Under the pieces are notes generated by a model. It saw only the letters and a program-made list of their open reading frames with translations, searched no databases and was not told the DNA's origin. Positions 46,062-51,626 of a stretch of 52,782 nucleotides of DNA are shown in pieces. Each line of letters opens with the position of its first letter. The first letter of the stretch is position 1. The translations under genes and the position numbers were made by a program. The DNA comes from a virus: IMG/VR virus record IMGVR_UViG_3300025154_000134, positions 1 to 52,782 of that record; one strand, written 5' to 3'.

Positions 46062-46498
46062 GCTTCCACCTCCACAAACTCGCCGCCGCGCACGTCGTGC
46101 AGTTGCGCGGAGTAGTCGGCGTACAGCGGGGCGCGTTTGGCTTCGTAGTCGGCGTCCAGCGTGTCGCGTTTGGCTTCGTAGTCGGCGTCCAGCGTGTCGC
46201 GTGCGGACTGCCACGCCTCGATGATTGGCCCGGCCTGCTGCGCGACTTCGCGCACACGGTTGTCAATCGTCTCGCGCAGGCGTTCAGCCCACGCGGGGAT
46301 GGCCATCTGGTCGAGCGTTACCGCCTCATACGGAGGCTTACACTCGGTGCGCAGCCAGTGCGCCAGGGCGGGATCGCCTTGGTCGTCAAGGCTCAGTGCG
46401 GCAATAAGCGGCTCGTGGTGCATCGTCAGACCGTGATACACCGTGATTTCGTCGGTCAGCGGGTCATGCTGTACAGTACTTGAATGATTGTTGCACAT
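46058..46498 (-). CDS. Protein with tandem 11-residue repeats, unknown
   Basis: The 146-residue protein (MCNNHSSTVQHDPLTDEITV) contains RDTLDADYEAK repeated in tandem, followed by a degenerate copy (RAPLYADYSAQ). These make a long helix. The exact DNA duplication beneath them is listed separately. A structural or scaffold role is possible, but the function is unknown. Confidence 0.6.
   Translation of the reverse strand: MCNNHSSTVQHDPLTDEITVYHGLTMHHEPLIAALSLDDQGDPALAHWLRTECKPPYEAVTLDQMAIPAWAERLRETIDNRVREVAQQAGPIIEAWQSARDTLDADYEAKRDTLDADYEAKRAPLYADYSAQLHDVRGGEFVEVEA
46132..46197. repeat. Two exact 33-bp tandem repeats
   Basis: Bases 46132-46164 and 46165-46197 are identical, encoding the 11-residue repeat of the surrounding minus-strand gene. 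Identity at wobble positions shows a recent duplication. Confidence 0.85.
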
Positions 46499-46935: not shown

Positions 46936-47358
46936 CTAATTGTTAGGGTATCGACTTCGCAGCAGTTGCATTCCCTGAGATCTGCCATAATTTTTGCTGT
47001 TCGCTATGTACTTGTCATTCCGTAGAGGTGCACCGTGGTTGTGCAGTTTCACAATCCAGAATCGTTCTCGCTGGTGGGCCTGTTGGTATGGCACTGTCTC
47101 AATAACAACTAACACTGGCCGCAGCCTCGCTTCTAATAATTCGCGTATCCACAGCGCCAGCTTTGGGCTTGCAACATACGGTTTTTTAACGCACATGTGG
47201 CTTATCATCCGCCCCTTGGGATTAATAGTAACCCCCACATAACAAATTCTGCTGTCGCGCGGATCGACCAATGCATAGATAGTATGAGGTTTTGTCAGCA
47301 GGTTGTGCCGTCGGGTGTCAATTCCTTGTTGTATTGACGCGCTTGATCTTGTAGTCAT
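46936..47358 (-). CDS. GIY-YIG endonuclease
   Basis: The 140-residue protein has the family core: PHTIYALVDPRDSRICYVGV (GIY and YIG elements as IYALVD...CYVGV), an Arg in NPKGRMISHM, and a later ETVPYQQAHQRERFWI containing the expected Glu-rich region. It is probably a homing or free-standing mobile nuclease. It lies between the leftward operon promoter and the divergent regulator and has its own promoter. Confidence 0.75.
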   Translation of the reverse strand: MTTRSSASIQQGIDTRRHNLLTKPHTIYALVDPRDSRICYVGVTINPKGRMISHMCVKKPYVASPKLALWIRELLEARLRPVLVVIETVPYQQAHQRERFWIVKLHNHGAPLRNDKYIANSKNYGRSQGMQLLRSRYPNN

Positions 47359-47889: not shown

Positions 47890-48032
47890 GCCCCCTGGCC
47901 CTGGCGGGTGTCCGCGTCAGAACACTGTCGGGCGGTTCGTGGTCTGCGCCGATGAGCCTGGCGAGTACGGACCAAAATAACGGACGGCTCCACGATACGC
48001 CGTCCGAGCGGGTTCGATCCCCGCAGGGGGCA
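47890..48032 (+). ncRNA. Expanded tRNA-like RNA
   Basis: GCCCCCT (47890-47896) pairs perfectly with AGGGGGC (48025-48031), a 7-bp acceptor-like stem. Directly inside its 3' strand is a perfect T-arm: GCGGG-TTCGATC-CCCGC (48008-48024). Before that is an 8-bp hairpin, CGGACGGC/GCCGTCCG (47981-47988/47999-48006), then GGTC/GACC enclosing CGCC/GGCG (47941-47973). At 143 nt it is too long for a normal tRNA, lacks an obvious anticodon and ends GCA rather than CCA. It could be an intron-bearing or degenerate tRNA, a tmRNA-like or other guide/regulatory RNA. Confidence 0.55.
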
Positions 48033-48094
48033 GCATACCAGTAGGGGGTGCGGTGACGAAAAGAGGATTAAGCCCGCACACACGATAGGCCCTT

Positions 48095-48192: not shown

Positions 48193-48195
48193 GAA

Positions 48196-48288
48196 TTCGG
48201 TAGCTCAGCGGATAGAGCAGGGAATCGCAGACCCGAATGGTAATCGGGCAGTCGTTTCCACGCGCGGGTTCGACTCCGGCCCCGATCC
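48196..48288 (+). ncRNA. tRNA-like element with expanded anticodon arm
   Basis: TAGCTCAGCGGATAGAGCA is a textbook tRNA D-arm (stem 48203-48206/48215-48218). A T-arm, GCGGG-TTCGACT-CCGGC, is at 48264-48280 with one mismatch. Between them GGGAA/TTTCC (48220-48224/48255-48259) makes an anticodon-type stem, and inside that is a second 5-bp stem with a 7-nt loop, CCCGA-ATGGTAA-TCGGG (48232-48248). The acceptor stem pairs in only four of seven positions (TCGG/CCGA). It is therefore a degenerate, insertion-bearing or repurposed tRNA, not a standard one. Confidence 0.5.
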
Positions 48289-48377: not shown

Positions 48378-48435
48378 ACCCCGCGCCGCAGGGGGCATCT
48401 GCGGCACACACTCAGGAGAGGGAGAGGGTACAGAA

Positions 48436-49146
48436 ATGGACCAACCAGGAGACGTTGTATATAGCGATTCGGCTGCTGTTCTGGCGCGCGCGCTGGTGGA
48501 CCTGCGTGATCGCGTCATTCAGAAGACGCGCATACAGTTCAACAACCGCGTGGCCGCGATGGACCAGGAGCGCGACTCAGACGTTCATCAGGCTTTGATC
48601 CTCAAGTGGCACGCGCACTTTGAAGACCTCGAAAAAGCCCTGGACGCGGACATCGCCACCATTGCCGAATCCCTACCCATCGTGCAGGAGATGACCGCTG
48701 TCAAGGGCATTGGTACCATGTTGGCGGTCAAGGTGGCGGCGCTCATTGATATTGAGCGGGCAGATACCGTCTCGGCACTGTGGAAGTACGCCGGATATGG
48801 TGTGACCGAAGGGGCACGGGACCGCCTCGAAAAGGGCGAGAAAGCGCCCTACAACATCCGCCTGAAAACGACCTGTTTTCTGGTGGGCGAAAGTTTCATC
48901 AAGTGCAATTCGCCCTATCGCCGCATATACGATGAGGCCAAAGCGTTTTATGAAACAGCTCATCCCGACTGGACTCCGGGTCACCGGCACAATGCCGCAC
49001 GCCGGAAGATGATCAAGTTGTGGCTGTCTCATCTATGGGTGATCTGGCGCACGTTGGAAGGGTTGCCAGTCAGTGATCCCTACATCATCGCGGGGGATAA
49101 CAACCATCACCGGTACATTGGCCCTGAGCAGTTCGGCTGGGGTTAA
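48436..49146 (+). CDS. TasA-like protein: IS110/Nop-type RNA-binding domain, no nuclease
   Basis: The 236-residue protein starts MDQPGDVVYSDSAAVLARAL. I chose ATG 48436, with GGAGAGGGAGAGG upstream, over the longer frame through structured RNA. Residues 1-85 are helical. Residues about 85-215 carry MTAVKGIGTMLAVKVAALID, SALWKYAGYGVTEG, NIRLKTTCFLVGESFIKCNS and YRRIYDEAKAFYE, the helix-hairpin-helix pattern of IS110 Transposase_20 domains, which resemble Nop domains. The IS110 DEDD/RuvC domain is absent and the SKxGN catalytic-Ser region is replaced (EKAPYNIRLK). A 36-nt-period two-repeat array starts at its stop codon, as expected for the Tas protein of a TIGR-Tas system. It would bind guide RNAs and target DNA without cutting. 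A stray IS110-derived protein is the alternative. Confidence 0.75.
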   Translation: MDQPGDVVYSDSAAVLARALVDLRDRVIQKTRIQFNNRVAAMDQERDSDVHQALILKWHAHFEDLEKALDADIATIAESLPIVQEMTAVKGIGTMLAVKVAALIDIERADTVSALWKYAGYGVTEGARDRLEKGEKAPYNIRLKTTCFLVGESFIKCNSPYRRIYDEAKAFYETAHPDWTPGHRHNAARRKMIKLWLSHLWVIWRTLEGLPVSDPYIIAGDNNHHRYIGPEQFGWG

Positions 49147-49385
49147 GCCATGCTATCGGAGTAACCCAGCACTAATAAGCGAGCCGTGGAAAAAAAGGAA
49201 CCCATTCTTCGGAAGCGAGCCATGTTGACAGAGTAACCCATATATAGGAAGCGAGCCAGTTTCCTTAAGTAACCCAACCCGAATAAGCGAGCCGCAGTCT
49301 ATAAGGAACCCATCATTCAGAAGCGAGCCGAAGATACCAGAGCAACCCATAGAATCCGAGCGAGCCAACGGATACAAGAAGCCCA
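49142..49385 (+). repeat. TIGR-type array: two alternating 9-nt repeats, 36-nt period
   Basis: Repeat A, AAGCGAGCC, starts at 49177, 49213, 49249, 49285, 49321 and 49358 (the last GAGCGAGCC), with a weak copy ending at 49150. Repeat B, AGNAACCCA, starts at 49160, 49196, 49232, 49268, 49304, 49341 and 49377 (the last AGAAGCCCA). A-to-B variable segments are 10 nt (11 once), B-to-A segments 8 nt. Each unit is 36 nt with about 18 variable bases, enough for two 9-nt spacers. The final base of each 10-nt segment is always a purine, so the exact repeat edge is uncertain. Degenerate end repeats are typical of array termini. This is not CRISPR, since repeats are too short and of two kinds. Confidence 0.85.
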
Positions 49386-49427
49386 GTGACAGTAGAGCGC
49401 ATGACAGCACACCCCCAGGGGGACGCG

Positions 49428-50249
49428 ATGATCGACTACCTTGACACCGTGCAGCACATGGACGCGCTCGACCTCCTGCGTAGTCTGCCGGACGCGAGCG
49501 TGGATATGATTTTCACTGACCCGCCTTACGGCCACAACAACAACAACGGCGATCTTATTCAGCGCCGGGAACTGGCACTTGGAAAAGAAAAAGCAGTCCG
49601 TGAGTCTCGGCCAATACTGAACGATGGACCAGAAGCCAACGATCTGTTTTATCGGTTTTTGGGGGAAGCACAACGGGTGTTAAAACCGGGAGCCTGCTGC
49701 TGCTGCTGCTGCTGCGGCGGCGGCGGCCCCGATCCACAATTCGCACGGTGGACTCTGTGGATGGATGAAGTTATCGGATTTAAGCAGGCTGTAGTGTGGG
49801 ACAAAGGGCCAATGGGGATGGGGTGGCATTATCGCCGCAGTTATGAGTTTGTCCTGGTAGCGCAAAAACCCGGCGCGGCATGTAAATGGTATGACGTCAC
49901 CCGCGCGATTGAAAACATTATCCGACCCGGCAACGGGGCGTCGAAACAAATACCAGCCGAAAGCGATCATCCTACAAAGAAGCCGGTGGGGTTGGCAATG
50001 TGGTTTATCAGGTTGCACAGCCAACCCGGAGATATTGTATGCGATCCGTTTGCGGGCGGCGGTTCTACGCTAAAAGCGGCTCGATTGTTAGGGCGAAGGT
50101 TTATCGGGGCAGACTTGGACTTGTATTGGGTTGATTACACCCGCCGCGAATTACAGCAACCGTACACACCGCCGCTGTTCGACCTCGACGCGCCCGCGCC
50201 ACCCGCCGCCGCGCAGCTGCCGCTCATGGGCGAGGGGGACGCGCCATGA
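49428..50249 (+). CDS. DNA methyltransferase (DPPY) with poly-Cys tract
   Basis: The 273-residue enzyme has FTDPPYGHNNNNG near residue 28 (catalytic motif IV) and CDPFAGGGSTLKAARLLGR near residue 205 (AdoMet motif I), the beta-type order of N6-adenine or N4-cytosine methyltransferases. LKPG is followed by seven Cys and four Gly residues encoded by (TGC)7(GGC)4 at 49695-49727, then PDPQFARWTLWMDE. I recall related phage enzymes with the same Cys/Gly run, so it is probably real. ATG 49428 is chosen, with ATG 49401 an alternative. The gene starts 42 nt after the guide array. Confidence 0.82.
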   Translation: MIDYLDTVQHMDALDLLRSLPDASVDMIFTDPPYGHNNNNGDLIQRRELALGKEKAVRESRPILNDGPEANDLFYRFLGEAQRVLKPGACCCCCCCGGGGPDPQFARWTLWMDEVIGFKQAVVWDKGPMGMGWHYRRSYEFVLVAQKPGAACKWYDVTRAIENIIRPGNGASKQIPAESDHPTKKPVGLAMWFIRLHSQPGDIVCDPFAGGGSTLKAARLLGRRFIGADLDLYWVDYTRRELQQPYTPPLFDLDAPAPPAAAQLPLMGEGDAP

Positions 50250-50706: not shown

Positions 50707-50937
50707 ATGACAACCCCGCCGCCAAGTGTATCCCACCAGCGAGAGTCATCCCTTCGCGCTATTCGAGCCGGACTAGACACGGCAGGCTTCCGGCATAGCC
50801 ACCTGACCGATAATCAACTAAACGAGGTGATCGGGACGATGTGTTTCAACATTTTGATGCAGGGTGCAGATGTCTATGACTGGCAGCAATGGGTAACGGA
50901 GATGCGCGCGCGGCTCGACAAGGACGGTGCGGCATGA
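50707..50937 (+). CDS. Small protein, unknown
   Basis: The 76-residue product (MTTPPPSVSHQRESSLRAIR) is helical in its second half (LNEVIGTMCFNILMQGADVY). Its stop overlaps the ATG of the nuclease gene. GAGGTGAG precedes it. No family is recognised. Confidence 0.55.
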   Translation: MTTPPPSVSHQRESSLRAIRAGLDTAGFRHSHLTDNQLNEVIGTMCFNILMQGADVYDWQQWVTEMRARLDKDGAA

Positions 50938-51626
50938 AAGCGCCAAGCGAACGACATCTTGAGGATTACATCTGGGAACACCCCGAAGCGTTGGGAACGA
51001 TTAACCTTCCGCCCGAATACGGTGAAGATTGTGCTATGTATTCTTTTGTGCTACGACAGTTCCACTTGCCGTCTGGCATTGTAGACCTTATCGGGTTTGA
51101 TTACCGCATGGTAATTTTTGAGCTTAAGAAAAACGTAGTCACTGCACAGGCATTAACTCAGCTCATGCGTTATATGCGCGATCTGCAACGCATTGTCGAT
51201 CGCCTACTTATGACCTTGATGGAGTCACAAGTAACTGAGCCGTGGGCACGCTTACATTTCGATGTGAATCGCATTGGACCCAACCCCCTCTTAGCGGGCA
51301 CGCTGATTGGACACGACATTGAAGACAACAATCTTTTGATCGCCTGCCAAGCCTGTAACGTCGACGTGTATTTATACGAATACGAGAATGGCGTGTATAC
51401 CTTTGAAGACATCAGTCTTAACACTATTATGGGAATGGATGTATATGACAGTGTTTGCCGACTTGCGGCAGGCGAGATTGGCAAGGCGTTCTTTGATCAC
51501 TTCCGACAAGATATCGAAGATCATCCAGCACGAGACGTACAAGTGCAGCGAGCCATGTTCTCTGTACTTAAAGCGGCAGAAGCTCATCTTAAAGAGCGTG
51601 ACGAGATCACAGGCGGTGCAGTATGA
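50934..51626 (+). CDS. NucS/DUF91-like PD-(D/E)xK endonuclease
   Basis: The 230-residue protein starts MKAPSERHLEDYIWEHPEAL at an ATG overlapping the preceding stop. It has the nuclease core of the NucS/endonuclease family: LPSGIVDLIGFD (catalytic Asp near residue 51) and VIFELKKNVVTAQALTQLMR (Glu-x-Lys near 62, followed by the helix with Gln). An N-terminal ERHLEDYIWEHPE is also typical. It should cut DNA at mismatches or branched structures during replication or repair. It directly precedes the initiator. Confidence 0.72.
   Translation: MKAPSERHLEDYIWEHPEALGTINLPPEYGEDCAMYSFVLRQFHLPSGIVDLIGFDYRMVIFELKKNVVTAQALTQLMRYMRDLQRIVDRLLMTLMESQVTEPWARLHFDVNRIGPNPLLAGTLIGHDIEDNNLLIACQACNVDVYLYEYENGVYTFEDISLNTIMGMDVYDSVCRLAAGEIGKAFFDHFRQDIEDHPARDVQVQRAMFSVLKAAEAHLKERDEITGGAV

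What the first reader, a model, noticed from the sequence alone, without database searches (positions are those of the whole stretch)
48436..49385. A TIGR-Tas-like RNA-guided system in this phage
Seen: a 236-residue protein with an IS110/Nop-like helix-hairpin-helix domain is followed at its stop codon by an array of two strictly alternating 9-nt repeats (AAGCGAGCC and AGNAACCCA) with a 36-nt period. The bases between them vary in every unit, about 18 per unit. Known: TIGR-Tas systems, reported in phages and parasitic bacteria, have exactly this form: arrays giving 36-nt guide RNAs with two 9-nt spacers, and Tas proteins with a Nop domain related to box C/D RNPs and IS110 proteins. Inference: this locus makes six or seven dual-spacer guides loaded on the Tas protein.
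Basis: partly seen in the sequence, partly recalled or inferred. Interest (0 to 1): 0.97.

Follow-up and report, generated by a model that had tools for sequence, protein, structure and literature searches.

The report
A phage TIGR-TasA RNA-guided DNA-binding system
This phage carries a genuine member of the recently described TIGR-Tas family, a small RNA-guided DNA-binding protein with its bank of seven paired guides; it is the common, nuclease-free kind (TasA), so it is a new example of a known kind and what it aims at is unknown.

Summary
The 236-aa ORF (48436-49146) is a solo Nop-domain Tas protein. Its only PDB sequence matches are TasR (9mty, E 1e-27) and TasH (21kl, E 2e-17). Its AlphaFold model (pLDDT 88.7) matches TasH and TasR structures first, then IS110 recombinases. 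There is no room for an N-terminal RuvC or HNH domain, so it is TasA.

A dual-repeat array follows (49143-49399): seven units, period 36 (one of 37), edge AGCGAGCCR and loop AGNAACCCA. Five consecutive units share 17 of 36 columns; 200 surrogate windows never exceed 6. The edge repeat is identical to that of the TasH array in Salicola phage CGphi29, and similar arrays flank tas genes in unrelated phages. The closest Tas is 48% identical.

Most likely mechanism: 36-nt dual-spacer RNAs direct a TasA dimer to bind, not cut, 16-18 bp DNA sites. The guides do not match the phage's own genome better than mispaired controls, nor do 60 guides in seven other phages, so targets probably lie elsewhere; none was identified. 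The downstream methyltransferase is not a conserved partner. New member of a known kind.

The parts
48420..48428 (+). purine-rich ribosome-binding site before tasA
   Evidence: GGGAGAGGG 7 nt before ATG 48436 (sequence)
48436..49146 (+). tasA, solo Nop-domain Tas protein, 236 aa
   Evidence: phmmer to TasR 9mty E 1.1e-27 and TasH 21kl E 1.7e-17; AlphaFold pLDDT 88.7, Foldseek top hits TasH/TasR
49143..49149 (+). 5'-truncated first edge repeat TTAAGCC; its TAA is the tasA stop codon
49143..49399 (+). TIGR dual-repeat array, seven units, period 36 (unit 6: 37)
   Evidence: 17/36 invariant columns over five units against at most 6 in 200 surrogates
49151..49177 (+). unit 1: spacer A TGCTATCG(G), loop AGTAACCCA, spacer B GCACTAAT(A)
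49178..49213 (+). unit 2: edge AGCGAGCCG, spacer A TGGAAAAA(A), loop AGGAACCCA, spacer B TTCTTCGG(A)
49214..49249 (+). unit 3: edge AGCGAGCCA, spacer A TGTTGACA(G), loop AGTAACCCA, spacer B TATATAGG(A)
49250..49285 (+). unit 4: edge AGCGAGCCA, spacer A GTTTCCTT(A), loop AGTAACCCA, spacer B ACCCGAAT(A)
49286..49321 (+). unit 5: edge AGCGAGCCG, spacer A CAGTCTAT(A), loop AGGAACCCA, spacer B TCATTCAG(A)
49322..49358 (+). unit 6 (37 nt): edge AGCGAGCCG, spacer A AAGATACCA(G), loop AGCAACCCA, spacer B TAGAATCC(G)
49359..49393 (+). unit 7: edge AGCGAGCCA, spacer A ACGGATAC(A), loop AGAAGCCCA, spacer B GTGACAGT
49394..49399 (+). 3'-truncated last edge repeat AGAGCG; no terminator follows
   Evidence: sequence; no + strand terminator-like site at the array end
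49428..50249 (+). downstream DNA N6/N4-methyltransferase gene (best start ATG 49428 with AGGGGGA before it); neighbour, not shown to be part of the system
   Evidence: PF01555 E 3e-28; not adjacent to tas in relatives

Best explanation
A TIGR-TasA system of a tailed phage. tasA and the array would be transcribed together. The pre-tigRNA is cut inside the edge repeats into 36-nt RNAs of the form half edge, spacer A, loop, spacer B, half edge. A TasA dimer would hold each RNA through box D (AG) and box C (CC[A/G]) of the edge and loop repeats. It would then open a 16-18 bp DNA site in which spacer A pairs with one strand and spacer B with the adjoining stretch of the other, so the site reads 5'-A then the reverse complement of B. 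Lacking a nuclease, the complex would bind and bend DNA, most likely to block transcription or replication of a competing mobile element or of host genes. Shown here: protein homology and fold, absence of a nuclease domain, array anatomy, and no stringent match to the phage's own genome. Inferred from the published family: transcription, processing, pairing geometry and binding. The blocking role and the nature of the target are hypotheses. The confidence given is for 'TIGR-TasA system working by RNA-guided DNA binding', not for the blocking role, for which I would say about 0.5.
For: Sequence: TasR 9mty E 1.1e-27, TasH 21kl E 1.7e-17, no other PDB hit at E up to 10. Fold: model pLDDT 88.7, pTM 0.83; top 11 Foldseek hits are all TasH or TasR. 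Array statistics. Edge repeat identical to that of the Salicola CGphi29 array, whose protein and array were shown to form RNPs with 36-nt RNA. Dual-repeat arrays lie beside tas in Microcystis phage Mvi-JY20 and in about 14 of 19 IMG/VR tas loci outside the mycobacteriophage-like set. The tree puts the window protein inside the dual-repeat set, sister to L006 (99/97). Published TasA (FpTasA) binds 36-nt tigRNA. Box motifs match between edge and loop: AG...CC[R] and AG...CC[A].
Against: No rho-independent terminator at the array end, unlike the usual case (compare). One unit is 37 nt, and the last loop (AGAAGCCCA) and last edge have drifted, so some units may be inactive. No target: 18-nt patterns for two guides found nothing in IMG/VR, and 16-nt patterns for two guides found 24 and 27 stretches in scattered contigs, several near-identical to one another and with no link to this phage. 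No expression data.
Confidence: 0.93

Rival explanations
1. The same TIGR-TasA system, but its guides address the phage's own genome, regulating or bending phage DNA (for example early/late switching or integration).
For: TasA lacks a nuclease, so self-binding would not be lethal; the published discussion suggests aid to integrases.
Against: Best matches of the seven true A/B pairs in the 52.8 kb genome equal those of mispaired A/B controls (published geometry: 13 of 16 for all seven; control mean 12.95, maximum 14); the same holds for 60 guides in seven other tas-bearing phage records. Short-seed or mismatched targets are not excluded, and some records are incomplete.
Confidence: 0.05
2. The 236-aa protein is a domesticated or truncated IS110 transposase and the repeats are part of its transposon's non-coding RNA or end.
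For: Shared Nop-like domain; weak Pfam Transposase_20 match (E 0.19, below cut-off); IS110 proteins rank behind Tas in Foldseek.
Against: No DEDD/RuvC domain, no IS110 match by sequence in PDB, Tas matches stronger by many orders of magnitude; IS110 uses one bridge RNA, not a regular 36-nt dual-repeat array.
Confidence: 0.02
3. A degraded, non-functional TIGR locus.
For: One 37-nt unit, a degenerate last loop and edge, no terminator.
Against: The ORF is intact and confidently folded, with family-invariant residues such as E66, G91, G120, G134, Y165 and R190 kept; units 2-5 are fully regular.
Confidence: 0.05

Closest known systems
TIGR-TasA (Faure et al. 2025, PMC12045711), e.g. Flavonifractor plautii FpTIGR
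   Same: Solo Nop-domain protein beside a dual-repeat array with two spacers of about 9 nt per 36-nt unit and truncated edge repeats at the ends.
   Different: Different virus; edge AGCGAGCCR and loop AGNAACCCA; seven units; no terminator; array starts inside the tasA stop codon and lies directly before a methyltransferase gene.
SpTIGR-TasH of Salicola phage CGphi29 (L005)
   Same: Edge repeat AAGCGAGCCA is identical; loop AAGACAACCA is of the same design; both lie in tailed phages.
   Different: TasH has an N-terminal HNH nuclease; the window protein has none. Its array ends in a terminator.
Tas loci of IMG/VR record L006 and Microcystis phage Mvi-JY20 (L002)
   Same: Nearest Tas proteins found (48% and 38% identity) with 36-nt dual-repeat arrays.
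   Different: Different edge/loop sequences; L006's array lies before the gene; neither record has a match to the window's portal protein.
IS110/IS621 bridge-RNA recombinase; Nop5 of box C/D RNPs
   Same: Same Nop-type RNA-binding fold.
   Different: Have DEDD recombinase or pseudo-RuvC domains and other RNA partners; more distant than Tas by sequence and fold.

Membership tests
TIGR-Tas | Protein with Nop domain of the Tas family | tested here: met
   phmmer to TasR and TasH; Foldseek top hits TasH/TasR; tree
TIGR-Tas | Adjacent array of two alternating 8-12-nt repeats separated by about 9-nt spacers | tested here: met
[quoted passage not shown]
   AG...CC[R] in the edge and AG...CC[A] in the loop; criterion
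TIGR-Tas | Array starts with 5'-truncated and ends with 3'-truncated edge repeat | tested here: met
   TTAAGCC at 49143 and AGAGCG at 49394; criterion
TIGR-Tas | Rho-independent terminator after the array (typical, not defining) | tested here: not met
   no + strand site at the array end; described as typical, not as required
TIGR-Tas | Array processed to 36-nt tigRNAs bound by Tas | not testable with these tools
   needs RNA sequencing
TIGR-Tas | Guides bind DNA with spacers A and B on opposite strands | not testable with these tools
   no native target found; needs a binding assay
TasA subclass | No nuclease domain | tested here: met
   all-helical 236-aa model starting at the coiled coil; open frame only 300 codons in all
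TasR / TasH subclasses | N-terminal RuvC or HNH nuclease | tested here: not met
   as above; TasR and TasH matches begin at residues 29-30 of this protein, at residues 125 and 83 of theirs
IS110 transposase | DEDD/RuvC recombinase domain with Transposase_20 domain | tested here: not met
   only a sub-threshold Transposase_20 match

The most novel reading that the evidence does not exclude
TasA, the array and the downstream N6/N4 DNA methyltransferase form one operon whose array RNA is released from the shared transcript, with TasA steering or shielding sites for the methyltransferase on host or rival DNA.
Probability: 0.04. Interest if true: 0.75.

Novelty: new member of a known kind. Interest (0 to 1): 0.42.

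Why it matters
It adds a divergent phage (closest Tas 48% identical) to the TIGR-TasA set, whose natural role is an open question. It also gives a small, testable result: across 67 guides in eight phage records, true guide pairs do not match their own genomes better than mispaired ones, which argues against stringent self-targeting. The kind itself was published in 2025.

Tried and rejected
Self-target search of the seven guides, in three pairing geometries, with mispaired controls: no signal. Exact 18-nt target patterns for two guides in IMG/VR: none. 16-nt patterns for two guides: 24 and 27 stretches in scattered contigs with no link to the window phage; treated as chance, though the size of the collection, and so the exact expectation, is not known to me. 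Methyltransferase as conserved partner: only partial, non-adjacent matches in 6 of 20 other records. Single-sequence relatives of tasA or portal in IMG/VR: none found, so conservation of the spacers among close relatives could not be tested. Tandem Repeats Finder misses the array, as expected for a unit that is half variable.

Full report
Observation. The window is a 52,782-base virus record with a tailed-phage gene set: DnaB-like helicase, terminase, portal, major head protein and tape measure. At 48436-49146 lies an intact 236-aa ORF. From its stop codon onward an array of two alternating repeats runs to 49399. Aligned, the seven units show AAGCGAGCC and AGNAACCCA as nearly fixed blocks with 8-9 variable bases between them. 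Five consecutive units share 17 of 36 columns. In 200 Markov surrogates of the whole window the best value at any period from 28 to 49 was 6. The array is not coding: every + frame has stops and unit 6 has 37 nt.

Protein. Pfam gives only a sub-threshold Transposase_20 match. Against all PDB chains there are exactly two matching sequences at E up to 10: TasR 9mty (E 1.1e-27) and TasH 21kl (E 1.7e-17). A model built on 22 homologues from the window and IMG/VR has mean pLDDT 88.7. Its eleven best PDB matches are TasH and TasR chains (E 1e-11 to 1e-7, TM up to 0.82), followed by IS621/ISCro4 recombinases (E about 1e-4) and, far below, Nop5. The TasR and TasH alignments begin at residues 29-30 of this protein and at residues 125 and 83 of theirs, and the open frame allows no extra domain. 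The protein is therefore TasA.

Array. The published definition (PMC12045711) asks for two alternating 8-12-nt repeats, spacers of about 9 nt, box D and box C motifs shared by the two repeats, and truncated edge repeats at the ends. All are met here: AG...CC[R] in the edge, AG...CC[A] in the loop, TTAAGCC at the start (it includes the tasA stop codon) and AGAGCG at the end. The edge repeat equals that of the Salicola phage CGphi29 array, which served as positive control for my detector. The usual terminator is missing; the array runs up to a methyltransferase gene whose best start is ATG 49428.

Relatives. Tas proteins related to this one sit beside dual-repeat arrays in Microcystis phage Mvi-JY20 and in about 14 of 19 IMG/VR loci outside the mycobacteriophage-like set. 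CPR and archaeal genomes hold further relatives. The tree places the window protein with L006 (99/97) inside the set that has dual-repeat arrays; actinophage proteins form a separate group in which none was found. The window's portal and methyltransferase are not shared with these records apart from partial matches, so the tas cassette sits in unrelated genomic backgrounds.

Targets. The 8-nt 3' overhangs reported for TasR fix the expected site as spacer A followed by the reverse complement of spacer B. True pairs match the window no better than mispaired ones (12-13 of 16, 13 of 16; control mean 12.95, maximum 14). The same holds for 60 guides of seven other records. Exact 18-nt patterns for two guides are absent from IMG/VR. 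16-nt patterns for two guides give 24 and 27 scattered stretches that I take as chance. The natural target remains unknown.

Mechanism. By homology with the tested FpTasA, TaTasR and SpTasH systems, the array should yield 36-nt guide RNAs that a TasA dimer uses to bind DNA on both strands without cutting. Blocking a rival element or host gene is the likeliest use, but that last step is a hypothesis.

Noticed in passing
window 48194-48288 and 47891-48033: tRNA-like sequence just upstream of tasA: a sub-threshold tRNA match (21.6 bits) with a long insert in the anticodon arm, and a second T-arm-like GCGGGTTCGATCCCCGC flanked by TGCCCCC/GGGGGCA arms. ARAGORN calls neither. Possibly decayed tRNA genes or an attachment site.
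   Followed up: partly
window 49694-49730: A (CTG)7 run followed by GGC repeats inside the methyltransferase gene codes for CCCCCCCGGGG; a possible length-variable tract.
   Followed up: no
window 46075-46230: 33-nt repeats inside a minus-strand ORF (RDTLDADYEAK...), apparently a coding repeat.
   Followed up: no
window 46936-47358 and 50889-51626: GIY-YIG endonuclease-like and NucS C-terminal-like genes flank the tas region.
   Followed up: no
L004 2112-2453 and 3140-3500; loci L025-L035: 76 mycobacteriophage records encode a Tas-like protein (annotated transposase or hypothetical), with no dual-repeat array found near it in those examined. A 340-nt non-coding stretch with perfect inverted repeats lies before the gene in phage Ohno789: a tractable candidate for a stem-loop-type TIGR locus.
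   Followed up: partly
L007 3366-3960: The TIGR array lies upstream of tas in an open frame that continues into the tas gene, so 36-nt units read as 12-residue peptide repeats.
   Followed up: no
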